Assembly: GCA_947561715.1 (NCBI GenBank)
Contig: OX387204.1
Coordinates: forward strand, 9,491,001 to 9,555,000
Source: Ascidia mentula
Lineage: Eukaryota; Chordata; Ascidiacea; Phlebobranchia; Ascidiidae
Length of the DNA: 64,000 nucleotides
Direction of reading: 5' to 3'
Shown: positions 4,250 to 64,000 of the stretch, piece after piece
Position numbering within the stretch: position 1 is the first letter of the stretch
How the letters are laid out: every line of letters begins with the position of its first letter
Program-made: the position numbers and the translations under genes
Notes under the pieces: model-generated
What the model saw: the letters and a program-made list of their open reading frames with translations, nothing else
Told to the model about the DNA's origin: nothing
The model's database searches: none

Positions 4250-5937
4250 GATTTTTTTTTATTGAATGTCTTGAACTGTATTCTGTAATGAACAGGGTGA
4301 AAAAAATCTGTTGCTCTTGTCCTATAAATTTCAATTTAGCATTGAGTTACAATTTTATTACATGATATGTTATTTAAACTGAGAACCAAGCACAAGGAGA
4401 ATAAAATTTTATTAGTGCTTTGTTGAAAAAAAAATTAACTGGTATCTACATATAGAATTAAAAGCGGTAGTAACAAGGGGTGATTGGATGCCAAATTGAA
4501 AAAGATGTTGTGCACAGAGGAAATAGCCAAAACTTAAGCAAGTTAGACGTCACGAATCCTGACGTAATTAAACCAAAGGGCAGGCAGATTGGATACGAAG
4601 ACATTCAATATAAAAGTAAAACTATACACTTTAGCCTTTCCTAGCTCAAACAAAAACAAACTAATTGTGTACATTATATAAGTTACAACTGAAAATATTG
4701 ACAATCCTATATATACTCATAACTTACCAAGCAAATTTTAAACTTTTTTATTTATCATCAGTTCGAATAACAATCATCATGCGGTCGAAAACAAATGAGA
4801 TCCAAATAGGGGGCGTCCCTACAGATACCAAACACCAAAAAGCGCAATTGAGTTGGGAACCTGTACTAGTTGACCATTAGGCTAACTTCAGTTATTTCTA
4901 CAGGTAGTTATTTAAGAGTATTTTGTGTTTTATTTATGCCTACAAATAGGTATGAATGCGGAACTGTAACGTATGTTTGAGGATCGACAGGTGTAAATGT
5001 ATTTCACTTTGGATGAGTTGTATTCCGCTAAGTATGACGTAAAAGTTTTTTTGCTGACAAACGAGGAAAACTCATGTTAGGCCTAAAACATTTATTGAAA
5101 CATTAGGACTCAGGCAGAGTAGACATGGTTGATGGCTGTTTGTAATTTTGTTTTAATCAATTGTATATACATATGTTTCAGGGCACAAAGTTTGAAAACC
5201 CCAAAAAATCATGTTTTCATTATTTTTTTACATAGAGAAATCCGACAGATTTTGACTGGCCAAGGCAAAACACCAACTCAGGTCCAAAGGTTTTTCATAT
5301 GAGATAAAATGGGAAAGGTTTCTAGAACCCATTAGAAGGAATTTATTTTCATTGTGCACATAAATCTACAAGTGCAATTACTAAAGATGAATTTGTCAAT
5401 TGTCTGCAAATACTTTTATGTTAGCTTCAGTATAACTATTACGGTATAAACATTTTTCGGGGCAATTTTAAGCAAAGTTTGGAAAATGTTTTATCCAAAT
5501 CAACATGGCTGTTATTCTAGTTTTTGTACAACTGATTATCTTAAGCTGTGAACACAGTTTCAACCTGTAAGGTGTCATGAGTGTAGATGGTGTAGCTCTG
5601 AACAAACTGGTAAACTAGCCAGGTACTTTTTAGTGAACGCCGATCTGTTGCCTCCCCATAACCAGGTATTGAAAAGCAGAGGTGGACAACTGTGGATCAC
5701 ACTGTGCTCAAACAACTGTTTTGTTTCCAGTAGTGTTATAGGTTTGAGTGGTCAAGTTAAAGAGCCTATGCGTCGAAGTATTTTTACCATAAAGTAATTA
5801 TGCAGAAATGTTTACGGAAACGTAGTAGCCAAATGCTGTTGGTATTTTGGTCTAATAATTGCATGCCGCTTGAAATTAAATTATAAGCTCCTAATGTTTA
5901 GGAGGAAACCAACAGTTTTTTAGAAGAAGTGGGTATA
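4250..5937. other. Intergenic region between divergent AARS2 and INO80
   Basis: About 1.7 kb separating the start codons of two divergently transcribed genes, so it must hold both promoters. It is AT-rich and no convincing coding segment was seen. The only clear candidate control sites are the ACGTCA/TGACGTAA pair listed separately near 4546. A weak acceptor-like AG lies about 28 nt upstream of the AARS2 start. Confidence 0.6.
4546..4568. promoter_or_regulatory. Paired CRE/ATF-like sites
   Basis: GACGTCAC at 4546-4553 and TGACGTAAT at 4560-4568 lie 14 bp apart, about 300 bp upstream of the AARS2 start codon. Both match the core recognised by CREB/ATF-type bZIP factors. A third TGACGTAA occurs near 5035. 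Assignment is by motif only; such 8-mers also arise by chance. Confidence 0.35.
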
Positions 5938-16683: not shown

Positions 16684-17563
16684 CTATGCAATAATATTTG
16701 TGTTTTGTGCCAAACATTGTTTCACTGCTTGAAGTCTTTTTGAAATGCAATTCAAAACATACAGATCATCGTCCCGGCAAGATTGCGACAAACACTCACT
16801 GCAATCATTGATGTGTCGCTCACAGCCCATTGCAACATGACGTTGCATTAGTATGAAACTTAAATGTTGGTGGCATGCATCTTCCAGTGACAACAAGTGG
16901 TTGTCAACGCCATGAGGCGCCTCACTTCTCAGGGCGTCCACAAGGTTGAAGAGATATTCGAGATTATGTCCACTGTTGCCACGAGCGTTAACCATTGTTC
17001 TGGCAACCAAATCCGCACTGGCTGGTCCTAGGTAGTGCTGATTGGTTGGTGTTGCTACGAATGTAACCACATTGAGACAATGCGACGTATGTTCAGTATA
17101 AAACTCCAAGGCTTGGATTGCATATCCGCCTTTTGATATCTCCCTTGTAAATAAATGGCGTAGTGCACTGTGTATTTGCGATTTTCCTTTGAGGTGATAA
17201 GCAACGCCCCATGTTTCTCCGTTTGGCTCTTCAACAAGAGTTGCGACTCTTCCCGGCTAAAAAAGCGAGTGGACTTCATATTTATGGAATTTATGTGCAA
17301 TCAAAAATTTATTGCAATTAACTTACCGAACCAGGGACACCACGATGTGTGACATTGCCTTGCCAAAATCTTCGAACAAATCCGCGAACACGCCCGATTA
17401 CACGGTTTTCGTATTCGAAATTGGGTTTCCATATCAACGAACCATACCCAAAAACCAGCAGTTGAGGATTAGGGTTGTTTTTAACTGATTGAAGATGTTC
17501 TTCTTGTAATCTCGCACATTTTAAAAATTGTTGCAAAGATGACTCAAACGTTTCTTTCGACAT
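16684..17563 (-). CDS. CHAC1: ChaC-type glutathione gamma-glutamylcyclotransferase
   Basis: Cytosolic enzyme that cleaves glutathione to 5-oxoproline and Cys-Gly. Two exons, 17327-17563 and 16684-17256, join in frame to 269 residues. The N-terminal half has the family signature VFGYGSLIW, then [33 protein letters not shown], the catalytic Glu in [14 protein letters not shown] and SGHNLEYL. Family members are usually about 180-220 residues. Here an extra C-terminal stretch of roughly 60 residues, containing five cysteines and one pair of CxxC-like spacing, follows the usual end. [13 protein letters not shown] and SGHNLEYL look CHAC1-like, whereas HRGVPG looks CHAC2-like, so the paralogue is uncertain. 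An acceptor-like TTTTAG lies 33 nt upstream of the ATG. The gene is convergent with INO80. Confidence 0.9.
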
Positions 17564-20598: not shown

Positions 20599-23500
20599 CT
20601 ACCACTGTTTTAGCAAGGCATCGTTTTCTTTACAAGCTTCTTCATACGTCGGTAAGCGGTTGCTGGTTTTATCTGACACATCAACACGCGATAAACGTTG
20701 AGGTATGACCCTTTCTAATTGTATTGATTTCGGTCGACAAGATATAGGGGATTGCACACCAGACCCATCTCCGTTCAAAACCAAGTGATCTTCTTCAGAA
20801 TCCGTTACGAGCGCATTTTTGTTATGTTGTACAGCCATGCCAACCTGAGTGACATTTCTTTCCTGTCTGTCATCGACTTTACAGTTGTATACGTCATATT
20901 TTGAAAAACAGGTGGGAATGTTATTGGATTTGCTTGTTTTTTCGGAAGTTTCACAAATTTGAATATCGGGGAGCATGTGATGTGTTGTCGAGTCGCTGCC
21001 AAATTGATCTGGATTGTTTGGCGTCGAAAGAATAGGATTTCTTTTTCGATGGTACAACAAACAAGTTGCCGCAAAAATCAAGATCAGCACTAATATTCCG
21101 GCCCCAAGACAAATAGCAATCCACTGTGTTGTCGTTAAGTTATTTGGCTGATTAGACATTATTATTATTCGATTCTGGGGACTTTTTGTCAAGTCGTGTC
21201 TAATACGTGGTGGTTGAATATCATCCGCACCCTCCTTTGGGTATACCATTTGGCAATGGTCACCACGAAAGCCGTTTGGACATTTACAAAAGTATTGGTT
21301 ATGTCCATCAACACACTGACCACCGTTCAGACAAGGACTTGGAACAGGACAATTGTTCAAAGTATTACCGCAATCTTTACCAGTGAAACCAGATGCACAA
21401 ATACAACGAAAGTCATCTGTCAAATCAATGCAAATTCCGGCATTGTTGCACGATTGTTCTGAACAGTCATTGGAGTTATCCTCGCATTGTTTACCAACGT
21501 AACCTGGAGTGCACTGACACACAAAGCCACCTTTGGGCAAGTTATAACAGGTTCCACTGTTAAAGCAAGGTGATACGGAGCAATCGTTGATTTCTTCTTG
21601 GCATAATCTGCCCCTGAAACCACTTGGACATTGGCACTTAAATCCAGAATTAGTGCTTTTGCATTTCCCTCCTAAAATACATAAAATTCCACGATAAAAA
21701 ATACATTATTTTACTGGTTAGAATTCTAATTCAAAGAAAGATCTAATTTGTTGACAACTTTCCCACGACCTGAAATAGGCTCAACGATATATCGAATTAC
21801 TTTAGCTATACATATCGACTAATTGAGCCTTTGCCAATCCGAACAAATCGTTCTTTTCACTTACGGAAATACAAACAGGACAAAAGGTCCATTAGTTCCG
21901 CAAACAAACAAGGTTGCGCCTTTACCTATAGCGTACAAGATACAAAAGAACAGGCTACAACCCATGATAACGTGGGAAACGGTAACATTATATCCCACAA
22001 TGAAGCCCTACTCATATGGTAGATTACTTTTCCACTCTCGTTACCCACTAAAAGTAACAACAAAAAAACAGCCAAACATGTTTAAATTATATTTACCATT
22101 TCTGCATTTATCGCGCGTACAACCAGTGTAAACGAGTTCGCATTGATCGCCCATCCAGCCGTCCAAACACTGGCAATCGTAACTTCCGGCAATGTTGCGA
22201 CACAATCCGCCATTTTTGCACGGTTTGTCGTAACAAGTCAAAGCCTCGTCGCAGTTTGAACCATAGAATCCATTGGGACAAATGCACTGATAATCGTTGA
22301 TTAAATCCTGCCAACATAAATTTGATGGAATAACTGTTTGTAAATACGCAAGAGTCTGATCATTTGTTAAAATTTGTATCAAATTCCTTGAAACTACATC
22401 CTTCCTTGGGAAACGTTTCAGTTATGGTTGGACACAAGAAACTGGGTATGGTGCCAGTACGTTGTAATATAGAAGAAAGGGAAGTGACTTTTTATTGTTC
22501 TGCAGGATTTTTAGCGAAATTCAATGACCATTCGCACCTGCCCCCCAATTCGCAGGCGACTGATGTTTGATTTAAACGCCACACTCCCACAAGCAGCCAA
22601 ATGCAAGTGTTGTGTGAAAAAAGTAGCAGTATTAACTGGCTACGTAACACTTCACGCACATACACAAAAACCAAACATGTCAGATATATTTTCCAACAAA
22701 CACATCCCATTATGTAATTTAAGCAGCGTGAACATTGCTTATTTCATTTCTAAGTTTTATGCTTATTTTCAGTAGAAACGTTAAAAAAAACATGCGTTTA
22801 TTCATAAAAACGTGCTTATTTCCGTTTTGTTCATGTTCATTATGGTTTAAATCTTACCACACAGTGAGTTCCGTTAGTGCAAGGCGATGACAAGCATTCA
22901 TTTGTTTCCGATTCACAGTCCTTTCCATAAAACCCAGGCTTACATTCGCAGGTGTAACTTCCTTGGCCCGTATTTGAACACAGGGCCCCGTTTTGACAAG
23001 GTCGGTGATTGGTACAATAGTTTAAATCTGAAATTTGTTTTTTTTTAGAAATCTTCTATCGTATGTATAATGAATACAATTTGTACCTTGGTTGCAAAAC
23101 AATCCTCCCCAACCAGGGGTACAATTGCACTCGAAAGCGTTTATGCATTTTCCGTTTTTACAGCCAGGCAAAACTGCACATTTATCGCACAAAGTTCCAT
23201 TCCATCCAATCTCGCAACTGTTTGCGTAGTACAAAAGATTAACTGATACAGAACAAACGCTCATGGTCGAATAAACACAACGTTTGGACAGATGAATGCC
23301 GAAAAACACTGGGCAAATACTTACTTGCATTCGTTTGGTCGCTCACACGCACCATGTTCAGGATGACAGCCTTCTTTGCAAATTGCTGTAATCAAAATAC
23401 AAAAAGTAATCTCGTGAAAGAATTTTATTAAAAATTTACGATAATCTGTTTTTTGGCGAAATCATAATCAGATCAAAGAGGGGCAGCGGAGTTAAGTAGA

Positions 23501-25518
23501 GCAGAATTAAATTGATTGAATTGTAACAAGATAGTGACCCGAGTAACTCTGTTGTTCCCTAGTTTCTTGTGTGATATTTATAAGATGTCCATACAGTTTT
23601 GAGTCTTATTACTTTTAAGTACCGTCGAGTTTATTTGTTCAGGGTGTGTACAGTGATGCCTGTGGTCCAGAAAAGGTTTGGGGCCATTCAAGAGTAACAC
23701 TCTTAAACTGTGCATTTGCTATATAAAATGACTTTAAACGTTTAATCTAACAAAATGCATTATTTATGAGACTCTGAAATTGCTTGTAATGTTAAAATAA
23801 AACAACACACCCCACCTAATTGACATTACATTGTTATTTTGAAAGGTGCATCTCTCTAAACGGACAAACATTGGGAATTACCCAACCAAACATGTTTTTC
23901 TTCAGAATTTTTGCTTTTGGCCACATTAACAGATAGCAAACAGTTGTAAATAATTTGTTTTCGTTGCAGGTATAACCAGCGGACTTACGTTCTGCACAAA
24001 TTTTTCGTTTAGAGATTCCAGTCCATCCAGGCAAGCAAACCTTTCCACCATTTTCGTCACATGTGAAGTGACCAAACATATCATCACGTGGGCGGCAATA
24101 TATGTTACATCCATCACCATATTGATGGGGCTGACAGCGAACTCGATAGGAGTACTGAAGCTCGGTGTCTGAGTATCGGTGTGGAATTGGCCGAGTCCAA
24201 TTTCCATCAACGGACGAAACCGGCAACGCTGTGCCCCGCTTTATCAGTCTCGATATGATTAAATTACTATCTAAAACGACAATACAAAGCGTTAAACACA
24301 TATTTACATTGAAACAACAGTCTTGTCCTAAAACCAGTCTGGGCGCTGTGGTGAGCAGCTGGCGACCCGAAAATAATCTATTATCGAATTAGTGAGACAT
24401 ATGGCGCCTTTGTGCACCAACTGAACAATAAAACGAATCGTTTAATCGATGTGTTTTAAGCTATTTTACAATAGGTTGTCTGCAGTTCACGACAAATTTT
24501 AATTGGCGTAAAAAACATATGTTGTGGTTTATATTTGGAGCATCAGTTTGCATATATTTTACCTCTGCTCGCTAAAACTGGCGTTTTTTCTCCATTAGCT
24601 TTGACATGAAGAATGTCCACAATCAACGTGAATGTTCCCTGCAAATAAAACCAAAAAAAATCGGTTTTTTTAGTTTTTTGTGTTCAGGTTCTTCCGTTTT
24701 TAGCTTATAACGCACGCTATCGTAATGTGCTATAAAATATTCATTCCTCCATAACATGTCACTATAACATTCTTAAATAATACAATGGAACAGCACAGCA
24801 CAGCACAGCAGTTGCCTTGCACTGAAGATGGTCACAGTTGGTTGAAAACTTTCTGATATTGTTATCTAGCAATTTCCTATCTCTGACATTCATTATTAAG
24901 ATCATACGTACACAAATTCACCTAGCAGGTACTAAATAGTAAAAACCAGTTTCAATAAAATTCGTTCGTTTTTTATGTGTTTACATGCAAATTTTTAGTA
25001 AATACATGTAGACTACCTCTGAAGTTAGAAAATATACATGTAGACTATGCTATAACAAGTAAACTCACTGGCCATCGTAGTGTAAAGTTAAATTGTATAG
25101 GATGTTGCTGAAAATAAGTCGTCTTTTGTGGCTCGAAGGTGTTTTCACCAATAATCGGCGTCCGTGTATCTCCAAATGTACATGGGCGTTTGGTGTCTAC
25201 TGTCGCTTGATAATGTGTCAAACAAATACGAAAAGCAGTTCTACACGGATGTTGACACTGCTTCGTTTGCACCCTTGAACCATCATTAAGGCAACAATTT
25301 CCATTTCTTTGTTTGCCTTCGTCATTGACAAAACGATCCAAGCGCAACTCAAACATTCCCGATGCATTACCCTGTTAAATCATATACATGCCTACAGCGA
25401 TAAGACACGACTACAATTTATGAAATTGTTAATTGCTTACCGTTGTTGCATTTATTATCAAACACAATCCAACATAATAGATGACCAAGTGCGACGAGCC
25501 AAAGCATAAAGTACTCAT
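20599..25518 (-). CDS. DLL: Delta-type Notch ligand
   Basis: Single-pass membrane ligand that activates Notch on neighbouring cells. Nine exons: 25441-25518, 25069-25371, 24563-24638, 23989-24270, 23325-23385, 23087-23217, 22858-23027, 22097-22307, 20599-21671. They sum to exactly 795 codons including the stop (794 residues). In order: signal peptide (exon 1, hydrophobic [11 protein letters not shown]); MNNL domain ([11 protein letters not shown]...); DSL domain in exon 4 ([14 protein letters not shown] ... [15 protein letters not shown]); nine EGF repeats, the first two short as in other Delta proteins; membrane helix [19 protein letters not shown]; and a cytoplasmic tail of about 140 residues ending ALLKQW. 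No cysteine-rich VWC region follows the EGFs, so it is Delta rather than Jagged. The tail has LPTYEEA, an LPxY motif that could bind WW-type E3 ligases, and no typical C-terminal PDZ ligand. The start ATG lies 11 nt after a CAG acceptor-like site. Confidence 0.94.
24791..24811. repeat. Short CAGCA microsatellite
   Basis: Four copies of a CAGCA pentamer inside a Delta intron. Confidence 0.7.
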
Positions 25519-27480: not shown

Positions 27481-27641
27481 AAATGATTACATCAGGCTCA
27501 TGACCTTCTTCCATAGACGATGGTTAGTTTGAGCGCCACATGAGCGCTCAAATAAGCTGTACCTACAACAGTGCGCCAATTAACTTAAAATTCTCTTTTC
27601 ATGCAAATTAGCACGCCAAATGAAAATAAGCATTTTGTATA

Positions 27642-27694
27642 AGCTGCAGACAGGTGGCCACTGTTTCGACCTAAAAGGTCTCATCAGTGAAGCT
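27642..27694 (-). ncRNA. Hammerhead ribozyme, type I
   Basis: Self-cleaving RNA motif read on the minus strand. Stem I 5' strand AGCUUCA (27694-27688), core CUGAUGA (27687-27681), stem II GACCU-UUU-AGGUC (27680-27668), core GAAA (27667-27664), short stem III CAG-UGGCCAC-CUG (27663-27651), then U-C giving the cleavage triplet GUC, cut after 27649, and stem I 3' strand UGCAGCU (27648-27642). Stem I has six of seven pairs. Every invariant core position is present, including the G10.1-C11.1 and A15.1-U16.1 pairs. The very short stem III is typical of metazoan type I hammerheads found in small retroelements and satellites. The host element is not identified. Confidence 0.88.
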
Positions 27695-27889
27695 GGTGTG
27701 ACTATAAGACGACTTTGCTGACCAAACGGCCAAGCAAAGACTTCCACTTTGTGGTGACTATACAATCACCGTCATCCGTTGGGCACCAAACTAGGTGCAA
27801 CCTTACGGAAAAAAACAAGGTGGAAACACCATGACCAAGCAAAGCTCAACCAATAGTGCCGTCAGGTCCCGTGTCACGATAATCATACG

Positions 27890-27948
27890 ATAAGCAATGT
27901 GGAGCCAATAAATGAAACAATTCATATTATTGGCTCCACATTGCTTAT
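27890..27948. repeat. Near-perfect hairpin
   Basis: A 22-bp perfect inverted repeat (27890-27911 pairs with 27927-27948, arm ATAAGCAATGTGGAGCCAATAA shortened here to its first part ATAAGCAATGTGG) with an inner ATGAA/TTCAT pair in the loop, so about 27 bp can pair around a 4-nt loop. It lies about 200 bp from the hammerhead and may mark one end of the same element or the centre of a foldback insertion. Confidence 0.7.
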
Positions 27949-27956
27949 CATACGAA

Positions 27957-29234
27957 AATAAGCATGTTTGTTGGAAATAACCACATATCTTTTTTGCTTA
28001 GAAACCCCCCTAAAAACAAGCACAAATCTTGGAAATAAGCACGTATGACTGGGTATAGGCATCATAGTAACTGGCGCGTGATTATTTTTAAATGGCATGT
28101 GGCAGCTAAAAACACTTTTCAATATTTTATGACCACTTTGGTTCGGTAAAATGAACGCAAGGCTTCTCGAAGAGCTGTTCTGTCGTTTTAAATATTTCAT
28201 GGCAATTCTCGTCGTATATTTAATATATTAGGTAAGTAACGTGAAATGCTAAAAAAAAAGATGTAGGCTCTTCTCATAGTATTGGTAAACACAACTTAAT
28301 ATCCATGATAGCGACGAACAACCACAATCACTTCGTTCGTTCTCATTACATGTCACATGTTTCTTGCGTAATTTCCTTGAACTATTCTCCCAAACAAAGG
28401 AGTCAAAGCTCCACAACGACTGTGGGAATCGGTGTTTACGGATGTTCTCTATGAAGTTAAGAAACTTTCTGCACGCCTAATACCGATATAGTGATTACAT
28501 TGACAAACATCCTACTTTGTTTTTTAAACACATCCATAACTTGCTGTATTACAGTTCGTTTTCATTGAGTCCTATTAGGCGTCACTATTAAACAACACTA
28601 GGGAACTGCTGATGTAGTGCGGTTTACTGTGTGTTTAGCACCATGTCATGCATGTACGGAATTTCCTGTGGCAGCCAACGACCAATAGAAGGAGTGTGCT
28701 AGAAGTCGCATATGTAATTCAGAGCATTTCCTATTGCTTAGTGTATACTTTGCCAACTTGGCTGGTTCGGTGTTAAGACTACAAAATTTGCTTTAAACTA
28801 TTGGCGTCTTTCCCTTCTTTGCCACAAAGTATTATCCACAATATCATCTGCATAGCCAGCACTTTCGATGGATTGTATCCGCCCACAAAAGTATATTGTT
28901 CGCAATTCGGGATGAAAATAGAAAACCACGTCAACTTTTGTTCATTTGATTTTTCGTCGTGATTATTCGGTGCTATATGCAACAAGCTGTAGCAGCTTTC
29001 CTGATATTCGCATGATCGCAAATAGAGACATCGTTCTGAATGAATACTCGAATCAATCCTTATGTATATGTACATTATATGTTTGTTATCTATCAAAAAT
29101 CTGCATTACCAATGCTGTTAAACTATGCCCACACAGCTTAGCTCGAATTGGAATGCCCGAAACTAGGTGGCATAGCGTAACTTCACAAAAAAATAAAATT
29201 GAGCGTATTCTGTAGTGTAAAATTTCTGGATAAA
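27957..29234. other. No supported gene
   Basis: AT-rich DNA. Open frames at 27922-28200 and 28779-29096 (both minus) are unrecognisable. The latter could be a downstream exon of the small membrane-protein candidate at 29235-29612, but no splice support was worked out. Confidence 0.35.
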
Positions 29235-31224: not shown

Positions 31225-31870
31225 TATCAAATAACACTAAATTTGGTCTTCTAAAAAAACAAGAACCTTGTCAAATTTGCAAAACAAAAACTATACCCCC
31301 CCTTATTTTCCCATATTTCGAACACATTTCGGCCATAAAACCTTGCACAAACGTATGCCGATAAAATCCTTTTGAACCAACAACCCTACACACTCCTGCT
31401 ATCGAATAAAACCAAATTTGGCCTTCTAAGAAAACAAGAACCTTCTTTAATTGGGCAAATGCCAACCATACCCCCCTTGCGCCCTTGAACGCTATAGAGC
31501 AGCACGAGAATCGTACACCTTTCGGCCAAACAACCTTGTACAAACGTATGCCGATAAAATCGTTTTGAACCAACAACCTACACACTCCTGCTATCGAATG
31601 AAACCAAATTTGGCCTTCTAACAAAACAAGACCTTCTTTAATTGGACAAATACCAACCATACCCCCTTGCGCCCTTGAACGCTATAGAGCAGCACGCGAA
31701 TCGTACACCTTTCGGCCATAAAACCTTGCACAAACGTATGCCGATAAAATCGTTTTGAACCAACAACCCTACACACTCCTGCTATCGAATGAAACCAAAT
31801 TTGGCCTTCTAACAAAACAAGACCTTCTTTAATTGGAAAAATACCAACCATACCCCCTTGCGCCCTTGAA
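31225..31870. repeat. Subterminal tandem repeats, left arm of the MULE
   Basis: The marker AAATTTGG recurs at 31239, 31414, 31606 and 31797, giving periods of 175, 192 and 191 bp. Units are highly similar but not identical. Inverted copies at 32970-33360 form the right arm. Open frames here (for example 31271-31660 minus) follow the repeat and are not taken as genes. Confidence 0.85.
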
Positions 31871-32274
31871 AACTCTAATATTAATCACACAACCGATTTA
31901 TTACACATTATATTTATTACACAAAATAGTATTATTGCAGTTTGGTTTTACATTTTTTAGTTGTTTACCGCGAAGGAATGTTACTTATCAATTGTTTTCA
32001 CAACATTATTTTTACGCTGGACCCTATCAGGCGGGGAGTATGTGATAAGGCGGCGAGCCGAGTGATCGGAATCAGCGAGGCTCAAGGCTGCGCGGCGGGT
32101 AGAGAGATCGGGGGCTACGAGGCTCAAGATCGGGCGGCGTGTTTTCTGATCGGCACAAATTGGGTAATTATAGATTCTTCAATATAAGCAAACACAAACA
32201 GAAAGTCATTCATTCTCATTGAGAAACCATTTACAAACGGCGAAGCTACGACATATACTGTTACGAAATAAGCT

Positions 32275-32793
32275 ATGGAGAAGTCAACTATTCGAAACTG
32301 GTTGAATGTTTGTACCCAGCCAAAGGTAAGAACGCTTTTTCAAACACTGTCTATTGTTAACATATATAAATTTAATTTTGTTTCCTTTTTTTGCAGTCTA
32401 CAAGAGTGGAGAAGTATGGCCTTGGGATATCTGGGAAGCAGACAATGTGGCGGGTTCCCGTCAAAAGCAGTCGGAAACGGTTGGGTGTACGCCATTGCGT
32501 TTGCGGTCGCTTTATGTTATAATCACCATCCAGAACATCTAAATTTTAACGAGCCATCGCTGCGAACTGATATAGAAAAAATGTTGCGCAATAAAGAATT
32601 TGAGCCTCTTTTTAAGATGAAGAAGCTTATCGTAAACAGAAGAAAGAACAGCGAGACGGTTGCGATTCATTGTAATTGTAGACTTGCAGAAAATATGCAA
32701 CAATATTTTATAGAGTGTAGTAAGTGTTTAGAGCGCCCCATACCGGATGAAGCTAAAATCGAGGACGTGCCTTGGTTTTGCGGAAATTGTTAA
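32275..32793 (+). pseudogene. Ulp1-like protease C-terminal fragment plus zinc finger, transposon cargo
   Basis: A 172-residue open frame in the centre of the MULE. The part YAIAFAVALCYNHHPEHLNF resembles the end of Ulp1/SENP-type cysteine proteases that many eukaryotic DNA transposons carry, where DCGLFAIAFA holds the catalytic Cys. Here that spot reads NGWVYAIAFA, so the catalytic Cys is missing. It is followed by CNC, CSKC and CGNC pairs (residues about 130-172) resembling the PHD-like finger usually fused to these proteases, with the His/Cys loop shortened. A possible intron (GTAAGA near 32324 to TTTTGCAG near 32397) and a neighbouring frame containing WRVPVK suggest decay or splicing. 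A protease function looks unlikely. Confidence 0.5.
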
Positions 32794-33588
32794 TGTATAC
32801 GGCGCGATATTGTAGTGTAGGCATGTCATTGTAACAAATGTGTAACATATATTTTAAGTATTTTGCAGGTTGTTTGTGGCTTATTTGGCTTAAACACCAA
32901 GTCATCTGTGTACCTCCTCGTGGTGCGACTGGAAGCAGTTTCGGCTGACCAAACACAGAGGCGAATTTGACAAAAATACTATTTGTCCAATTAAAGAAGG
33001 TCTTGTTTTGTTAGAAGGCCAAATTTGATTTTATTCGATAGCAGGAGTGTGTAGGGTTGTTGTTTCAAAATGATTTCATCGGCATACGTTTGTGCAAGGT
33101 TTTATGGCCGAAAGGTGTACGATTCGCGTGCTGCTCTATAGCGTTCAAGGGCGCAAGGGGGTATGGTTGGTATTTGTCCAATTAAAGAAGGTCTTGTTTT
33201 GTTAGAAGGCCAAATTTGGTTTTATTCAATAGCAGGAGTGTGTAGGGTTGTTGGTTCAAAAGGATTTTATCGGCATACGTTTGTGCAAGGTTTTATGGCC
33301 GAAATGTGTTCGAAATATGGGAAAATAAGGGGGGTATAGTTTTGCAAATTTGACAAGGTTCTTGTTTTTTAGAAGACCTGCTACCTCGTAGGGCGGCCGA
33401 GTAACCCGCGTTCAAAGTTTTGTTAACTGGCAATTTTTTTGGTCAACTAACATCCCTCTGGTACACTAGCACTCTAGCGCAACATAAAAACAAAACAAAA
33501 TGCAAGTGTGTCAAAGAATACCAAGTTTTACTCTGCTTGTAATACTCTTTGATCTATTTATTGTATCAGTAATTTTTAGTAAAATTTC

Positions 33589-42730: not shown

Positions 42731-42889
42731 GGCCCGTTCCGCGCCAAGTACCGGGGCGCGTTCAACGGACGTTACATGAAAGTTTCAACTGTTTGTTAAA
42801 AGAAAGCTTCAACTGTTGGTTGAAGGCAAGTTTAACTATTTGGTAATGGCAATCTTGCCAAGTTCGCCTTTCAATATATAGCAGAACCA

Positions 42890-45800
42890 AGCGTTTCTCC
42901 ACCGACACTTCCTGATGCTGTCGTTGATCGTCTTCGACGACTCAGTGGACAATGCATCATCGCCGAATGTCTAATGAAGGATCGTCGCAACTTGCAGGTG
43001 CTTGAGACTGTCTTGATTACTTTAGAACAGCTTTTTATTGATGCGGTTGACGCCTACAAGGTGCATCCCGAGCTTGCTGATGATCTCGTAAGCGTAAAGA
43101 AAAACAAAACTGAATTTGACGACCGAGTTGCCCACTGGGTTTGTGAGGCAAACTCGCAATCTTGTCGTGATTTATCTGGGCATGTAACCAGCCCAGGTCG
43201 AAGCGGTGACGGTAGTCTGAAGGACAACAATTCCTCCTGCGGACGAAGTATGCGCTCAAGTTCTTCGACAAGTAGTAGAGCTCGCGTCAAAGCGACTACT
43301 CAGCTCGCGCGTCTTGCAATTCAACAGACTGCGCAAAGACAGGCGCTGGCAAAGCAACATGAAGAAAGAAAAATGACCGAAACAAGGCGACGAGCCGAGG
43401 AAGAAAGGCGACGAGCCGAAGAAGACAGGCGACGAGCCGAAAAAGAAAGGCGCCAAAGGGACGACATGGAGATCTTACAGCTGCAGCATAAACTACAGGC
43501 AGCCGTGGTGGAAGAGAGGGTTTGGGACGAGATGCCAGGAAACACGGAGTACGTGACGGTGAAGGATGGTTCTGGAGGAACGCCTACCACCCCCGGAGCA
43601 GCCGTTTGAGGAACAGCGTCGCGTTCAGTTCACGTCACCGCCTGTCACGTCGCAGCAAAGACTTCCGGACCAGCGGTATGTGGTTGATTATGTAACTCCC
43701 ACTTTGTCTCCGTCGCCATATGTTCCTGATAAGAAATCCTCGTTTGACGGGCGAGATTACACGAATCCCGAAAGTTGATAGAATACTGCCACGGACTGAG
43801 GGAAAACGGGTACCGGCAAGCGAGGCAGTTGTTGTACGATCAATATGGCAAGTCACACATATTTGCCCATGCATGCGTAAGGTGTGTCGTCAACGGCTCA
43901 GAATTACGGCCAAATGACGCTGCTGGTTTAAGCGAAATGGCGCAGTCGCTGCGCGATTGTTTATTTACTCTTTCAGACATTGACGATCATTCTGAGATGA
44001 ATAACTATCCAACGCTAATTGCTGTTGCAAATCGTCTTCCGTTTAAGATGCAGGAAGCTTGGAAACGACGTGTTGCAAAAATAATCAAAGAGACTGGCCG
44101 TGAACCTCTGTTCGAGCATCTCGTTGACTTCGTGGAATCTGAGAATCAGATTGCGAATTCGCTCTTTAGTCGTATGTTGGACGAGCATCGCAACGAAGCC
44201 AAGAAAGCTAAAGGTAAAGCTAGTCACGAAAAGGCCTTTAGTCATGTTGTTGTAAAGGAAGAAGAGTCTAAGCCCAAGGCTCGCGCTGGACCTTCCCCAG
44301 TTCCAGCAGTCCCTTTGTATCCGTGCTGTTCAGGAAGGCACAGCCTTGTAAAGTGCGAGGAATTTAAATACCGGTCGTACCGTGATCGTTTGCGCGTTAC
44401 TCGACGCCGCAGACTATGTGACAACTGTTTTCGATTTGGACATTTTGCGACAAAGTGCAACAGTCCCAGAGCGTGCACAGTGAAGGACTGCAAAGAAGCT
44501 CATCATACATTGTTGCATCCACCGGATATATATAGATATATAAGAGAGGAGACGAATCCTCCCCTGTTATAGGAACCGCACTGTAACGGACTGTCTGTTC
44601 GGTTGTGTCGGCAAGTGAAAGGGACCGTCATGCATCTTCTGGTCGTCAGAATGTCAATCTGATGATGGTTGCCGTCAAGGTCAGTGCCAACGGAAGGTGC
44701 GTAAACACGTATGCTCCTCTTCTGGATACTGGTTCTGGTGTCACTTTGTGTGACAGAAAGTTAACTGAAAGGCTTGGGTTGAAAGGTGAACCGAGCAACG
44801 TGACGCTGAAAACGGTCAACGGAGACAGCCGCAGACGCGAAGGCAAGATGGTTGGCTTGACCGTTGCTTCGCTTGATGGTGCTGCAACTGTCGAACTCCC
44901 TACGGCACACCGGATGCTGGTTCACCTGTTCGGGGCAGCTTCCTCCCCCTCATGTGCGAGCTTTTGCCTGAAGCAGGCTGCTGATGATTTACGAAACAAG
45001 TTTCCAAGTGAGGTCGTCGAGACCATAAAGAAGAATTTCTACGTCGACGACTGTCTGAAGTCTGTATCAACTGAAGCAGACGCTATAAATCTTGTCCAGA
45101 GTAATTGCACACTTGTTAAGAGGAAGGGATTTCGTTTGATCAAGTGGGTTAGCAACAGAGAGCGAGTTCTCGCGTCCATTGACGAAGACCAACGAGCAAA
45201 ATCGGTCAAAAAGCTGAATCTGGATGGATAGTCGTACGAGAGAGCTCTCGGAGTTCGGCGGAACATTTGCTCAGACAAGTTCGGGTTCTCCGTTGACGTA
45301 AAGCAGCCGAAGTCCTTTACCAGAAGAGCTATCCTGTCAGTGGTGAGTTCGTTGTATGATCCGCTTGGTTTTGCAGCGCCCGTGATCGTGGTGGCAAAGA
45401 CGATGCTAAGTGACCTCTGCAGGAAACAACTTGGTTGGGACGACGTGCTTTCCGATGAGGATTCCGAAACGTGGAGGAAATGGTTGCAGCAACTACCGCG
45501 GTTAAAAGATGTCGTTTTACCTAGATGCGTGAAGCCAAGCAGTTTCGGTAAGGTGCGAAAAACGGAATTGCACCATTTCGCAGATGCGTCATCTACAGCT
45601 TACGGTACGGTGACATACCTGAGGCTGGTAGATAAGCGAGGACGCATTTACTGTTCGTTTCTGATGGGTAAAGCGCGTGTTGCCCCACTGAAGACGTGTT
45701 CGATTCCCCGCCTGGAGTTGACGGCCGCCGTTGTTTCAGTCAAGTTGGATCAACTTGCGAGGAAGGAATCGGATCTGGTCGGATGCCAATCTGTGTTCTG

Positions 45801-47360
45801 GACAGACACGACTGCCGTTCTCCAAAGCATTCGCAACTGCTGTTCGTAGCAAACCGCTTGGCCAAGATTGAAGAGGCATCTCATCCAAATCAGTAGAGGC
45901 ATGTAAGCACAAAGGTAAACCCTGCTGAAGAAGCGTCACGTGGCCTTCGTATGAACAAATTTCTAAGATATATCCGATGGCTAAATGGACCCCAGTTTCT
46001 TTGGGAAAGAGAAGATACATGGCCCTCTTTCCCCGACTTGTCCAACGTGCCGATCGAGTTTCTTCAAAAAAATAGGTTTTCGTCGAAGTACAGGGTGCCG
46101 ACTGGTCAATTGACTGTCGTCGAACTCAGAGCTGCAGTGTCAAAGGCAAAGGACGGAACTGTTTGTGTGCCAAAGAAGAAGAGAGCTTTGGAAAAGCTCA
46201 ACCAAATTCTTGTTGATGGAATTCTAAGGGTTGGCGGAAGGTTGGAGCGTGCATTGATCGACTTCGACGTGAAGCATCCGATCATCCTTCCGTACGACCA
46301 TCGAGTTACAGACCTGGTGATAATGCAGCAGCATGATGAGGTTGGTCATGCTGGAATGGGACACACCTGGTCGTCGCTTAGACAATGCTACTGGATTGTC
46401 AAAGGAGGTGTGGCGGTTCGACGCGTACTGGGCAAGTGTCTCTCTTGCCGACGACGAAACGGTTCCTTGGGGAAGCAGATGATGGCAGACCTTCCTGCTG
46501 CGAGGCTAGGCCACCATTTTCAGTGGTGGGTGACAAATACTTCGGACCCTTCCTTGTGAAGCAAGAGCAAAGTGAGGTAAAGAGGTACGGTTGCATCTTT
46601 ACTTGTTTCTCCACCTTTGACGGTTCGTCGGTCGTCGTGGGCGTCCAAACCATATTTTTAGCGACAACGGCCCGAATTTCGTCGGAGCCGAGCGTATCCT
46701 GCGCGAAGAACTGAAGAAGTGGAACCAACAGCAGATTCACGAATATCTGCAACAACGCGAAATTGCATGGAGGTTTAATCCCCCCATACTGCCAGCCACA
46801 TGGGTGGGGTATGGGAGCGCATGATACGCTCTGTGCGCAAAATTCTCAACGCCCTGCTCTCGGAGCTGACGTTGTCTGCACTCTGATGGTAGGGGTCGAG
46901 GCAATCCTAAACTCCCGTCCCTTGGTCCCAGTGACGTTCGATCCGAAGGATGAGGAGCCCCTTACTCCAAATCATTTGCTGCTGCAACGTGCAGCGCCAA
47001 ATATGCCCCCAGGACTGTTCACGGGGAAGGACTGTTACCATCGAAACCGGTGGCGTCAGGTACAATACCTGGCCGATCAGTTTTGGAGGCGATGGTCTCG
47101 CGTGTACCTACCTACGCTCATGCCCAGATCGAAGTGGGCAAGTGGACATTCGAATTTTGTGGTCAATGACGTGGTTCTTGTGGCGGATGACAACCAGCCC
47201 CGGAGCAAGTGGCTCCTGAGTCGAGTGATTTAGGTACTTCCTGATCGGAAAGGAGTTGTGCGTCAGGTGATCGTCAAGACTCACACTGGTGCGTTAAGAC
47301 GCCCAATCTCAAAATTGTGCTTATTGTGTTGCGACGTCGCGATGCGTGATTAGTTGCGAG
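42890..47360 (+). mobile_element. BEL/Pao LTR retrotransposon, broken fossil
   Basis: Decayed internal region of a Pao-type element. Recognisable parts in order: Gag-like coiled region rich in RRAEE repeats (about 42974-43609) and a capsid/zinc-knuckle region (about 43775-44572, with CDNCFRFGHFATKC); aspartic protease with LLDTGSGVTLCD (from about 44605) running into a reverse-transcriptase part with YVDDCL; RNase H-like region (about 45340-45849); and integrase with an H2C2 zinc finger and a C-terminal part with NSRPL and NRWRQVQYLADQFW (about 45951-47233). The coding is interrupted several times (roughly five or more), so it is not intact. Protein-level preservation suggests moderate age. 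No pair of long terminal repeats was recognised, so the outer limits are approximate. Confidence 0.85.
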
Positions 47361-48220: not shown

Positions 48221-48480
48221 AGGACGCATATTGGTATTTCTATGAAAATTAGTTTTGGTGCTGGGAAATGCCCACCGTGTAGACCTGTGTCACAATGCAA
48301 AGTCATGCATCACCAAGCAAAGCAGTGACGCAATTAAGTTAAATTTACGGTTGAATGGGCGCACATGTGCGTGCTGTTGTCATGTTGAATTTTAAGGTGT
48401 TTGGGGCAGTTTTAGTGTGGTTTTGAGCTATTCCAATTAGGTAGTAACTTGCTGGTGGGTGCTGCTGAAATTTATGTTGA

Positions 48481-48850
48481 AAATGGAGCAAAAAAATCAG
48501 GCTGTGTTTGTGGCAAAATGAATCGTTTAAGTGTCCAATCATTTGTGATTTTATGAAAGATCCATTTCATATCTACAAATTTTGATCAAAATTAGTCTCC
48601 GAAAAAATGGTTTAGCCACCCCCCTAGGGCCATTTGCCCCCCTGGTTACTCAATATTTTGGTTAAAAGAGCAACCAAAAATGGAACTGGATTTTGCAGAA
48701 AAATGAATCGTTCAACTACCCACTCATTTGCATTTTTTTGTAAGTTCCAACTCTTCTCTATGCGATGGCATCAAATTTAGTTGCTGAAAAAGTGTCAATG
48801 CCCTCCCCCAAGGGCTGGGTATACCCCCCTGTTGGTCATATGATCTTCCA
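48481..48850 (+). repeat. Diverged internal duplication within each array unit
   Basis: Within unit 1, about 48485-48665 and about 48670-48850 are related in the same order: (C/A)AAAATGAATCGTT at 48515 and 48700, then ATCAAA(A)TTTAGT..C..GAAAAA, then a C-rich block with CCCCC(T)AGGG and CCCCCCTG. The offset is about 185 bp. The same pair recurs in every full unit. Confidence 0.65.
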
Positions 48851-51800
48851 GGAGGCCCAAAAAGTCCTTGCTCTGTACAGTCTCATCCAGGAGCAATTTT
48901 TTTTTTCAACTTTGTAGAATTCCAGGTCCCTATGTAAGTCACAAGACCCATCAACGGTCATTGGGAAACAAGCGGAACAGTCGCTAGATGCATTACAGCC
49001 GAGGGCCTTGAACACAGGATTTCTCCTATCTAATACCCATATAGGTCCTTAAGGCGAAATGTCAAATTTTTTAAATGGTGAAATAGACATTAAATTTACA
49101 CTGAAATATGTTTATTTATGTAAGTTAAACATCATAGGAGGATTTTATACCAGCTCCAGTCATCAGTCGCCACCTAGTGACAAAAATGAATTTTTTCAAT
49201 GCCCTAATGTACATAAAGTATGGGGTCTGTTGCTTGACTTTCAGCTTTCAAACAACTTGAAATATAGCTTAAAATGCATGCATTTCCTCTATTGTCATTC
49301 CGCAACACATTTTGAGTCATTTATAACACATAGTTTTTGCAATGTATTGTTCATTCGTCATGGCATTTGTTGCATGTGCTGTCTTTCACAGCATCCATTC
49401 TTTTGTTGACCTATTTTGCAAAATCTTGAATTAAAGGCTATTTCATCTTGTTTAGTCATAATACATGAAATATAATTATTTTGTGGCCTAAGTACTGTAT
49501 TTATTGCCACAGAAAGAAGTGGTCCAATGCCGGTGGGTGATACTTCATACGAAAGGATTCCAATAAACCCACTGCTGAAACTGCCGCAACCAACAATGTA
49601 TTTCCTGTATGTACTGCACTTGTTGACATGTACAGTAGTTCCTAATTGTGTTTGGGCCATTAAATTTCAATACAAAACACTTTGCAAGGTCTTGTGGGCC
49701 ACTTAACAGCACTCTTTTCATGTCATTTTCATGCTTTGGAGATAGCCATGATTTCTTACCATTATGCATGTGACTAATTAGCCTCGAATATTGATTAATT
49801 GAAACTTTTGTTGTGTCATTGAGCATGTGTGCATACAAATGGGTGTTGCCATGACTGGTGCATGATGTTTCGGTGTAATTTATGTGAACCGCTTAAGGTC
49901 GGTGGCATCATTTTCTGCCTATTAGCTGTACTGCTTGTAGCCCTGCTGATAAGGTCATTTTCTGTTGTTTAGGGGGTGTTGGTAAAATAGCCATAACTCT
50001 GGGATCGATGATCAACCAGGTGTGAAACTTCACATTGTGATAGGTGAATGTCCCATATACTTTGCGGCTTAGGCCAATTGGGAATCTGGTCCATTGACCT
50101 CCTATTGAAGGACGCATATTGGTATTTCTATGAAAATTAGTTTTGGTGCTGGGAAATGCCCACCGTGTAGACCTGTGTCACAATGCAAAGTCATGCATCA
50201 CCAAGCAAAGCAGTGACGCAATTAAGTTAAATTTACGGTTGAATGGGCGCACATGTGCGTGCTGTTGTCATGTTGAATTTTAAGGTGTTTGGGGCAGTTT
50301 TAGTGTGGTTTTGAGCTATTCCAATTAGGTAGTAACTTGCTGGTGGGTGCTGCTGAAATTTATGTTGAAAATGGAGCAAAAAAATCAGGCTGTGTTTGTG
50401 GCAAAATGAATCGTTTAAGTGTCCAATCATTTGTGATTTTATGAAAGATCCATTTCATATCTACAAATTTTGATCAAAATTAGTCTCCGAAAAAATGGTT
50501 TAGCCACCCCCCTAGGGCCATTTGCCCCCCTGGTTACTCAATATTTTGGTTAAAAGAGCAACCAAAAATGGAACTGGATTTTGCAGAAAAATGAATCGTT
50601 CAACTACCCACTCATTTGCATTTTTTTGTAAGTTCCAACTCTTCTCTATGCGATGGCATCAAATTTAGTTGCTGAAAAAGTGTCAATGCCCTCCCCCAAG
50701 GGCTGGGTATACCCCCCTGTTGGTCATATGATCTTCCAGGAGGCCCAAAAAGTCCTTGCTCTGTACAGTCTCATCCAGGAGCAATTTTTTTTTTCAACTT
50801 TGTAGAATTCCAGGTCCCTATGTAAGTCACAAGACCCATCAACGGTCATTGGGAAACAAGCGGAACAGTCGCTAGATGCATTACAGCCGAGGGCCTTGAA
50901 CACAGGATTTCTCCTATCTAATACCCATATAGGTCCTTAAGGCGAAATGTCAAATTTTTTAAATGGTGAAATAGACATTAAATTTACACTGAAATATGTT
51001 TATTTATGTAAGTTAAACATCATAGGAGGATTTTATACCAGCTCCAGTCATCAGTCGCCACCTAGTGACAAAAATGAATTTTTTCAATGCCCTAATGTAC
51101 ATAAAGTATGGGGTCTGTTGCTTGACTTTCAGCTTTCAAACAACTTGAAATATAGCTTAAAATGCATGCATTTCCTCTATTGTCATTCCGCAACACATTT
51201 TGAGTCATTTATAACACATAGTTTTTGCAATGTATTGTTCATTCGTCATGGCATTTGTTGCATGTGCTGTCTTTCACAGCATCCATTCTTTTGTTGACCT
51301 ATTTTGCAAAATCTTGAATTAAAGGCTATTTCATCTTGTTTAGTCATAATACATGAAATATAATTATTTTGTGGCCTAAGTACTGTATTTATTGCCACAG
51401 AAAGAAGTGGTCCAATGCCGGTGGGTGATACTTCATACGAAAGGATTCCAATAAACCCACTGCTGAAACTGCCGCAACCAACAATGTATTTCCTGTATGT
51501 ACTGCACTTGTTGACATGTACAGTAGTTCCTAATTGTGTTTGGGCCATTAAATTTCAATACAAAACACTTTGCAAGGTCTTGTGGGCCACTTAACAGCAC
51601 TCTTTTCATGTCATTTTCATGCTTTGGAGATAGCCATGATTTCTTACCATTATGCATGTGACTAATTAGCCTCGAATATTGATTAATTGAAACTTTTGTT
51701 GTGTCATTGAGCATGTGTGCATACAAATGGGTGTTGCCATGACTGGTGCATGATGTTTCGGTGTAATTTATGTGAACCGCTTAAGGTCGGTGGCATCATT

Positions 51801-57800: not shown

Positions 57801-59548
57801 GCACATGTGCGTGCTGTTGTCATGTTGAATTTTAAGGTGTTTGGGGCAGTTTTAGTGTGGTTTTGAGCTATTCCAATTAGGTAGTAACTTGCTGGTGGGT
57901 GCTGCTGAAATTTATGTTGAAAATGGAGCAAAAAAATCAGGCTGTGTTTGTGGCAAAATGAATCGTTTAAGTGTCCAATCATTTGTGATTTTATGAAAGA
58001 TCCATTTCATATCTACAAATTTTGATCAAAATTAGTCTCCGAAAAAATGGTTTAGCCACCCCCCTAGGGCCATTTGCCCCCCTGGTTACTCAATATTTTG
58101 GTTAAAAGAGCAACCAAAAATGGAACTGGATTTTGCAGAAAAATGAATCGTTCAACTACCCACTCATTTGCATTTTTTTGTAAGTTCCAACTCTTCTCTA
58201 TGCGATGGCATCAAATTTAGTTGCTGAAAAAGTGTCAATGCCCTCCCCCAAGGGCTGGGTATACCCCCCTGTTGGTCATATGATCTTCCAGGAGGCCCAA
58301 AAAGTCCTTGCTCTGTACAGTCTCATCCAGGAGCAATTTTTTTTTTCAACTTTGTAGAATTCCAGGTCCCTATGTAAGTCACAAGACCCATCAACGGTCA
58401 TTGGGAAACAAGCGGAACAGTCGCTAGATGCATTACAGCCGAGGGCCTTGAACACAGGATTTCTCCTATCTAATACCCATATAGGTCCTTAAGGCGAAAT
58501 GTCAAATTTTTTAAATGGTGAAATAGACATTAAATTTACACTGAAATATGTTTATTTATGTAAGTTAAACATCATAGGAGGATTTTATACCAGCTCCAGT
58601 CATCAGTCGCCACCTAGTGACAAAAATGAATTTTTTCAATGCCCTAATGTACATAAAGTATGGGGTCTGTTGCTTGACTTTCAGCTTTCAAACAACTTGA
58701 AATATAGCTTAAAATGCATGCATTTCCTCTATTGTCATTCCGCAACACATTTTGAGTCATTTATAACACATAGTTTTTGCAATGTATTGTTCATTCGTCA
58801 TGGCATTTGTTGCATGTGCTGTCTTTCACAGCATCCATTCTTTTGTTGACCTATTTTGCAAAATCTTGAATTAAAGGCTATTTCATCTTGTTTAGTCATA
58901 ATACATGAAATATAATTATTTTGTGGCCTAAGTACTGTATTTATTGCCACAGAAAGAAGTGGTCCAATGCCGGTGGGTGATACTTCATACGAAAGGATTC
59001 CAATAAACCCACTGCTGAAACTGCCGCAACCAACAATGTATTTCCTGTATGTACTGCACTTGTTGACATGTACAGTAGTTCCTAATTGTGTTTGGGCCAT
59101 TAAATTTCAATACAAAACACTTTGCAAGGTCTTGTGGGCCACTTAACAGCACTCTTTTCATGTCATTTTCATGCTTTGGAGATAGCCATGATTTCTTACC
59201 ATTATGCATGTGACTAATTAGCCTCGAATATTGATTAATTGAAACTTTTGTTGTGTCATTGAGCATGTGTGCATACAAATGGGTGTTGCCATGACTGGTG
59301 CATGATGTTTCGGTGTAATTTATGTGAACCGCTTAAGGTCGGTGGCATCATTTTCTGCCTATTAGCTGTACTGCTTGTAGCCCTGCTGATAAGGTCATTT
59401 TCTGTTGTTTAGGGGGTGTTGGTAAAATAGCCATAACTCTGGGATCGATGATCAACCAGGTGTGAAACTTCACATTGTGATAGGTGAATGTCCCATATAC
59501 TTTGCGGCTTAGGCCAATTGGGAATCTGGTCCATTGACCTCCTATTGA

Positions 59549-63600: not shown

Positions 63601-64000
63601 ACATAGTTTTTGCAATGTATTGTTCATTCGTCATGGCATTTGTTGCATGTGCTGTCTTTCACAGCATCCATTCTTTTGTTGACCTATTTTGCAAAATCTT
63701 GAATTAAAGGCTATTTCATCTTGTTTAGTCATAATACATGAAATATAATTATTTTGTGGCCTAAGTACTGTATTTATTGCCACAGAAAGAAGTGGTCCAA
63801 TGCCGGTGGGTGATACTTCATACGAAAGGATTCCAATAAACCCACTGCTGAAACTGCCGCAACCAACAATGTATTTCCTGTATGTACTGCACTTGTTGAC
63901 ATGTACAGTAGTTCCTAATTGTGTTTGGGCCATTAAATTTCAATACAAAACACTTTGCAAGGTCTTGTGGGCCACTTAACAGCACTCTTTTCATGTCATT

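What the first reader, a model, noticed from the sequence alone, without database searches (positions are those of the whole stretch)
27642..27694. Consensus-perfect type I hammerhead ribozyme on the minus strand
All core positions (CUGAUGA, GAAA, GUC cleavage triplet) and three stems are present, with 6/7, 5/5 and 3/3 pairs plus the core pairs. Random occurrence of this is very unlikely. Known animal hammerheads of this short-stem-III form sit in small retroelements or satellites, and here only one copy is visible, so the carrier is undescribed from this window.
Basis: partly seen in the sequence, partly recalled or inferred. Interest (0 to 1): 0.75.

Follow-up and report, generated by a model that had tools for sequence, protein, structure and literature searches.

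The report
Ribozyme-bearing jumping element with Penelope signature
The hammerhead ribozyme is real and belongs to a small non-coding jumping element (a retrozyme) found many times in this animal genome, and the copies examined are inserted in the manner of Penelope-type reverse transcriptases, which bears on the open question of who moves such elements.

Summary
Observation confirmed: a short-stem-III type I hammerhead lies at 27694-27642 (-), predicted cut 27649^27648. It is not wholly "consensus-perfect": stem I has a C.U mismatch that most relatives lack. It sits in a 320-bp insertion (27634-27953) flanked by a perfect 12-bp target duplication, one copy of a dispersed family (RZ1, 284-nt unit) related to a second (RZ2, 293-295 nt). 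The core pattern occurs 2,310 times in the genome against 1 for the reversed control. By anatomy these are metazoan non-LTR retrozymes. The new point is insertion anatomy. Of 21 RZ1 insertions with a called TSD and both ends mapped, 20 have one end at site A (12-19 nt past the cut) and the other, on the opposite strand, at site B (40-50 nt). That is the "tail, head-to-head" signature of Penelope-like elements (PLEs). A PLE family of the same genome shows it too (5 of 5 composites), PLE neighbours on opposite strands are all head-to-head (17 of 17), and two PLE families carry minimal hammerheads. Best reading: circular or multimeric ribozyme RNA is inserted in trans by a PLE protein. Cleavage, circles and PLE use are inferred.

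The parts
27642..27694 (-). type I hammerhead ribozyme, short stem III; predicted cleavage between 27649 and 27648
   Evidence: read directly; family model R1 80 bits, but this copy (as L001) was in the training set
27634..27953 (-). whole retrozyme (RZ1) insertion, 320 bp
   Evidence: TSD-delimited; 88 DNA matches in own genome for a 301-bp query of this region
27634..27911 (-). one turn of the 284-nt RZ1 unit in sense orientation, ending at site A on the 27634 side
   Evidence: end maps to unit position 15; 277 nt, u24 round to u16
27919..27953 (+). inverted copy of the 'tail' (unit positions about 16-50), ending at site B on the 27953 side; forms the hairpin with the adjoining sense copy
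   Evidence: (end maps to unit position 50)
27622..27633 (.). target-site duplication GAAAATAAGCAT, copy 1
27954..27965 (.). target-site duplication GAAAATAAGCAT, copy 2
5542..5742 (-). second, decayed retrozyme copy (about 64% to RZ2 over 218 columns) with a broken hammerhead
   Evidence: 19.8 bits, E 0.0043

Best explanation
The hammerhead is the processing ribozyme of a non-autonomous, non-coding metazoan retrozyme (RZ1). Inferred cycle: tandem copies are transcribed; the ribozyme, which has a palindromic stem-III loop and is probably most active as a dimer, cuts the RNA into 284-nt units; these are ligated into circles by a host enzyme. A PLE-encoded reverse transcriptase/GIY-YIG endonuclease takes the circular (or uncut multimeric) RNA in trans, cuts both strands of an AT-rich target, and starts cDNA at two sites just 3' of the ribozyme: site A from one target strand and site B from the other. 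The two antisense cDNAs are joined head-to-head, giving inverted/direct composites with one A end, one B end and a TSD of about 8-16 bp. The window copy is such an insertion: a one-turn A-started cDNA plus a short B-started one. Shown here: family, tandem units, TSDs, A/B ends, shared anatomy with PLEs, PLE hammerheads. Inferred: cleavage, circles, PLE protein as the agent.
For: Dispersed family: 88 matches for the 301-bp query; core pattern 2,310 genome matches against 1 for the reversed control; tail pattern 1,177 against 0. Tandem unit 284 nt, longest frame 81 aa over three units. Ends of the 40 RZ1 loci (L033 and L047 share flanks, counted apart): 20 have one A and one B end with a TSD; 15 have an A end and an unmapped other end (11 with TSD, 4 without); 5 others. 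No A/A or B/B among the 40. RZ2: of 9 loci 4 A/B, 3 B only (L079 and L080 alike), 2 unclear. Same genome: in the PLE family of L060, 3' ends (BLAST ends, not TSD-anchored) fall at q529-544 and q567-571, one of each in the 5 composites seen (L058, L066/L075, L067, L071, the L060-L064 array); neighbouring PLE hits on opposite strands are -/+ in 17 of 17 (GIY-YIG) and 11 of 11 (RT-EN) pairs, overlapping samples. Minimal hammerheads: 13 of 16 loci of the L060 family and L049, L052, L056 of a second family; 0 in 10 Mb of control sequence. In print: the PAc PLE protein cuts and extends both strands and starts at two adjacent internal sites that define the 'tail' (PMC11167929, parts 1-2 of 4 read); Penelope copies have an inverted pLTR, a ~31-bp tail optionally at one of the inverted pLTRs, head-to-head most often, TSDs (PMC3846280, passages). 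The sampled insertions continue past the cut site, so their templates were not linear cut monomers: 34 of 34 A segments and 23 of 27 B segments (partly built in by how loci were chosen). Dimer folds are double hammerheads for RZ1 (-47.7 v 2 x -17.4) and RZ2 (-51.4 v 2 x -19.2 kcal/mol).
Against: No covariation in the hammerhead set: 0 of 16 pairs changed on both sides, shuffles not exceeded. Rfam below threshold. RZ1's monomer minimum is another fold (-17.4 v -16.0 for the hammerhead); so is the window copy's (-13.9 v -12.3), and its dimer is not a double hammerhead. RZ and PLE tails show no similarity beyond chance (175-471 of 500 shuffles reach the score; two PLE families tested) and the tail hairpins are not significant (z -2.0, -1.5, -1.2), so what a PLE protein would recognise is unknown. 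In the L060 PLE family A/B lie further from the cut (about 63-78 and 101-105 nt) than in RZ1 (12-19, 40-50). Exceptions: L044 (u266/B), L024 (B/u268); L028, L030, L041 not resolved by the script. The A and B windows were set after seeing the ends. The shortest TSDs (7-9 bp, 8 of 41) could be chance. RZ1 loci were the best matches to this window copy and had to hold nearly a full unit. Other PLE-type loci scanned (L048, L050, L053, L054, L055, L057, L065, L073, L074, L076) and L051, L066, L075 gave no hammerhead.
Confidence: 0.83

Rival explanations
1. Retrozyme mobilised by a LINE-type (non-PLE) machinery, or by an unknown reverse transcriptase.
For: A 2024 review leaves LINEs open (PMC11722881, passages), as does PMC7229834 (discussion). 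No sequence link between RZ and PLE tails.
Against: Two internal starts on opposite strands, head-to-head composites, 3' end inside the unit with no poly(A) seen at the printed ends; the same pattern in PLEs of this genome.
Confidence: 0.09
2. The copies are solo pLTRs or reduced derivatives of an autonomous hammerhead PLE rather than an independent retrozyme lineage (not exclusive with the best explanation as to the agent).
For: PLEs here carry hammerheads and A/B-type ends; solo pLTRs are known in Adineta (PMC3846280, passages); a review proposes that retrozymes arose by PLE reduction (PMC11722881, passages).
Against: Head-to-tail units of 284 nt repeat without coding sequence (six core hits about 285 nt apart at C1:3332752-3334202). 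Of PLE loci L048-L077, those matching RZ1 at E below 1e-3 (L067, L049, L056, L077) match in separate insertions or outside the PLE end. Hammerhead forms differ (7- or 14-nt stem III loop v 2-nt loop). Not all PLEs of the genome were read.
Confidence: 0.15
3. A palindromic DNA transposon (MITE) that happens to contain a hammerhead-like motif.
For: Window copy has a hairpin end and a TSD.
Against: The inverted part varies in length between copies, called TSDs vary from 7 to 16 bp, copies can be tandem, and the two ends differ (A and B).
Confidence: 0.01
4. Chance resemblance to a hammerhead.
For: Rfam score below gathering; no covariation.
Against: About 0.001 expected in the window; 2,310 genome copies against 1 control; core and 7-bp stem I kept in a second family 66% identical.
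Confidence: 0.01

Closest known systems
Metazoan non-LTR retrozymes (Cervera and de la Pena 2020, PMC7229834; abstract, part 1 of results and discussion read)
   Same: Type I hammerhead, small tandem units (150-450 bp), GC under 50%, TSDs longer than 4 bp, non-autonomous. Palindromic stem-III loops are reported there for axolotl.
   Different: Inverted/direct composites with A/B ends: 'inverted' and 'tail' occur 0 times in that paper's main text. RNA expression and circles, shown there, are untested here.
Penelope-like elements (PAc, PMC11167929, parts 1-2 read; Penelope of Adineta vaga, PMC3846280, passages)
   Same: Two adjacent internal RT starts, tail at one of the inverted copies, head-to-head composites, TSDs; hammerhead in PAc upstream of the starts.
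   Different: RZ1/RZ2 encode no RT or endonuclease; their hammerheads have a longer stem-III loop and no extra base between CUGANGA and stem II; A/B lie closer to the ribozyme than in the L060 PLE family.
Plant LTR retrozymes (PMC4918200; search listing and start of abstract only)
   Same: Non-autonomous, ribozyme-bearing, propagated through circular RNA.
   Different: Type III hammerheads, LTRs, PBS/PPT and 4-bp TSDs there (as stated in PMC7229834).

Membership tests
metazoan non-LTR retrozyme | type I hammerhead core and stems | tested here: met
[quoted passage not shown]
   284-nt RZ1 and 293-295-nt RZ2 units; many single insertions hold little more than one unit. The window copy itself holds one
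metazoan non-LTR retrozyme | TSDs larger than 4 bp | tested here: met
   called in 41 of 49 loci, 7-16 bp, 33 of them 10 bp or more; the calls for L041 (7 bp) and L086 (element sequence) look spurious
metazoan non-LTR retrozyme | GC under 50%, no coding capacity | tested here: met
   47.5% and 47.1%; longest frame 81 and 99 aa over three units
metazoan non-LTR retrozyme | lack of LTR, PBS and PPT | tested here: inconclusive
   no LTR arrangement seen in 40 loci; PBS and PPT were not searched for
metazoan non-LTR retrozyme | expressed linear and circular RNA; self-cleavage | not testable with these tools
   no RNA data or bench work
autonomous Penelope-like element | RT plus GIY-YIG open reading frame | tested here: not met
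   no such frame in the unit; no match of two PLE protein parts in the window
insertion by PLE-type machinery (works like) | two internal starts, one at each end of head-to-head composites, with TSD | tested here: met
   20 of 21 RZ1 insertions with TSD and both ends mapped; 4 of 9 RZ2 loci; 5 of 5 PLE composites of the same genome
Rfam Hammerhead_1 (RF00163) | score at or over 34 bits | tested here: not met

The most novel reading that the evidence does not exclude
Animal retrozymes are trans-mobilised parasites of Penelope-like elements: both use one module, ribozyme then start A then start B. Because A/A and B/B insertions were not seen in the sample, the two cDNAs of one event start on the same RNA molecule, and the junction-crossing, often once-around cDNAs point to a circular ribozyme RNA as template. 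One genome would then give both the agent and the order of events. (Lowered from 0.5 to 0.45 on checking: junction crossing and one-turn length are partly built in by how the loci were chosen.)
Probability: 0.45. Interest if true: 0.75.

Novelty: new member of a known kind. Interest (0 to 1): 0.58.

Why it matters
Papers that I could see leave open which reverse transcriptase moves animal retrozymes, naming PLEs (or LINEs) as candidates from co-occurrence, tandem copies and shared hammerheads (PMC7229834, PMC7761336, PMC11722881). Insertion ends record the enzyme used. Here, in the copies examined, they match the PLE signature in detail, in a genome where PLEs with long open frames and, in one family, the same end rule coexist. 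That makes a specific prediction: RT starts at A and B on retrozyme RNA with purified PLE protein. It may also say why both kinds of element keep a hammerhead just 5' of the start sites.

Tried and rejected
L077 first looked like a PLE with an RZ-type hammerhead; it reads as a truncated RZ2 insertion inside a PLE RT region. The hammerhead-like 53 nt in L049/L056 lies outside the 3' end of that PLE, in a local repeat. I first concluded that PLEs here lack hammerheads; a scan allowing one inserted base and a 2-nt palindromic loop found them in two families. Whether hammerhead pairs 2.81 kb apart on C1 bound a PLE could not be read. A shared tail sequence or a significant tail hairpin was tested and not found. 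Covariation was tested and not found. The exact 25-base RZ1 core was not in viral contigs. The clustering of A-started cDNA 5' ends at u13-28 (9 of 34) is discounted because loci were picked by full-unit matches; that at u230-252 (13 of 34) is less open to this, but the window was chosen after seeing the data. The host species was not identified. One search timed out.

Full report
Observation. The minus strand at 27694-27642 reads as a type I hammerhead with the core CTGATGA...GAAA and TC before the cut; stem II has 5 of 5 pairs, stem III 3 plus the A-U pair, stem I 6 of 7. It was the only hit of a motif scan of the window. Simulated first-order sequence of the window's composition gave 1 hit in 106 Mb of one strand under similar stem criteria, so about 0.001 is expected in the window. 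Rfam does not reach threshold, and RF00163 gave nothing over its cut-off in the genome, where 73 of 27,659 first-look candidates were scored.

The carrier. The window is C72:9491001-9555000 of a 196-Mb genome. The host is an animal by inference from a DSL (Delta/Serrate) domain, known to me as metazoan, in the window; the species is unknown to me. A 301-bp query gave 88 matches (a lower bound). I held 40 RZ1 loci (L001, L009-L047; L002-L008 lie at places among these and were dropped). The pattern CTGATGAGN11CGAAAC has 2,310 genome matches, the reversed control 1; the RZ1 tail with up to 3 mismatches 1,177 against 0. A second family, RZ2 (unit 293-295 nt), was met through L077; RZ1 and RZ2 are about 66% identical over the unit. 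A third, older copy (69% over 204 columns, 86% over 44 columns of the tail) lies at about L067:499-741. Of 99 hammerheads extracted from held loci (34 distinct), 53 share one RZ1 sequence. L041 and L044 are 100% identical to the L042 unit over 372 and 402 bases, so activity is recent by inference.

Window copy. The insertion is 27634-27953, between perfect copies of GAAAATAAGCAT at 27622-27633 and 27954-27965. On the 27634 side it ends at unit position 15 (site A), on the 27953 side at position 50 (site B). It consists of one turn of the unit in minus sense and a tail of about 35 nt in plus sense. Numbering: u1 is the first base after the cleavage site.

Ends of the family. Of the 40 RZ1 loci, the script called: one A and one B end with TSD, 20; A end with the other end unmapped, 11 with and 4 without TSD; and one each of B/u266 (L044, TSD), B/u268 (L024), B only (L028), u24 only (L030), u61 only (L041). 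By eye L028, and L041, also look B/A, but they are not counted. Among the 21 with TSD and both ends mapped, 20 are A/B (A u12-19, B u40-50); none of the 40 was A/A or B/B. Of the 18 with one mapped end, 15 end at A. The class windows (A u8-20, B u39-52) were set after seeing the ends. L033 and L047 have the same flanks and are both in the single-A class. Over 41 called TSDs (RZ1 and RZ2) lengths are 7-16 bp and A+T 78%; window A+T is 62%. Of 9 RZ2 loci, 4 are A/B (A u9-15, B u35-43), 3 B only (L079 and L080 alike), 2 unclear (L085, L086).

PLEs in the same genome. GIY-YIG gave 121 matches (150 of 382 candidates scored). The 3' region of L063 was tested on 19 other loci; 4 gave no match (L050, L052, L053, L057). 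In the family, BLAST 3' ends fall at q529-544 and q567-571, and the 5 composites with both ends seen have one of each, counting L058/L059 and L066/L075 once. Neighbouring hits on opposite strands within 5 kb are all -/+: 17 of 17 and 11 of 11, two overlapping samples of candidates. Minimal hammerheads with one inserted base and a palindromic 2-nt loop were found in 13 of 16 loci of the L060 family (not L051, L066, L075) and in L049, L052, L056 (also in L089, L090, which cover L049, L056), with different stem sequences; 43 loci (L048-L090) were scanned, and 10 Mb of simulated sequence gave 0. In the L063 family the predicted cut precedes A by about 63-78 nt and B by about 101-105; in the L049 family many copies end about 50 nt after the cut, and no second site could be fixed. 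One inverted piece in L057 runs from that end exactly to the predicted cut, and one RZ1 B segment (L028) stops at u1, as expected if cut RNA sometimes serves as template.

Published basis. The PAc PLE protein cuts and extends both target strands and starts at two adjacent internal sites that correspond to the genomic 'tail'; its hammerhead was not needed for insertion in vitro (PMC11167929, parts 1-2 of 4 read). Penelope copies in Adineta have inverted pLTRs, a 31-bp tail optionally at one of them, head-to-head order most often, and TSDs (PMC3846280, passages). Metazoan retrozymes are described in PMC7229834 (abstract, part 1 of 3 of the results, discussion, passages), which names PLEs as a strong candidate; PMC7761336 and PMC11722881 (passages) leave it so. 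The listings of five searches (open-licence PMC papers only) showed no title or abstract start reporting this end anatomy in retrozymes; I did not read all papers listed, and the two key papers on PLE hammerheads were not held.

Template. By BLAST-segment ends in 39 loci (L047 dropped), all 34 A-started segments and 23 of 27 B-started ones cross u284|u1 (the B set counts L041 twice and L036, whose TSD-anchored end is A). The loci were chosen with a query that itself crosses the junction, so one crossing segment per locus is expected; insertions from linear monomers would be too short to be in the sample. For the insertions seen, a linear monomer, which begins at u1, cannot have been the template: it was circular or multimeric. 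13 of 34 A segments stop at u230-252, the 5' edge of the ribozyme; I have no firm explanation. The palindromic stem-III loops (TGGCCA in RZ1, GTGTATACAC in RZ2) and the dimer folds fit dimeric action, as described for weak-stem-III type I hammerheads (PMC7761336).

Limits. No covariation supports the fold. RZ and PLE tails do not resemble each other. The PLE family that would serve RZ1 is not identified. Loci were chosen by similarity to an RZ1 copy. No RNA evidence exists here.

Verdict. A new family pair of a known kind (retrozyme), with insertion evidence, not met in the papers I could see, that ties it to PLE-type machinery.

Noticed in passing
window 48221-63623: Tandem array of a 1,888-bp unit (300-nt samples 100% identical) with one shortened spacing of 1,057; no tRNA or Rfam hit at gathering; 37-39% GC. 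Nature unknown.
   Followed up: no
window 42836-47233: BEL/Pao-type retrotransposon with Peptidase_A17 and DUF5641 matches, at higher GC (45-50%) than the surroundings; coding in several frames.
   Followed up: partly
window 31297-33334: Array of about 191-bp repeats and its inverted counterpart around a 1.1-kb centre; a 134-bp piece at 30979 recurs at 42382 (88%).
   Followed up: no
window 20602-24388 (-): Pieces of a Delta/Serrate-type ligand gene (DSL and EGF domains), on the same strand as the retrozyme; ChaC-like gene at 16687-17256 (-).
   Followed up: partly
   Followed up: partly
L044 and L024: Two insertions end at unit positions 266-268, inside the hammerhead next to GAAA, in place of A; a possible third start site.
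   Followed up: no
G000 C1:1924046/1926856 and C1:1953760/1956572: Same-strand hammerhead cores 2.81 kb apart with the same two stem II variants; could bound an unread element or be a duplication.
   Followed up: no
L057:257-306 (-): Inverted PLE piece that runs exactly from the PLE 3' end site to the first base after the predicted hammerhead cut: perhaps run-off of a ribozyme-cut template.
   Followed up: no
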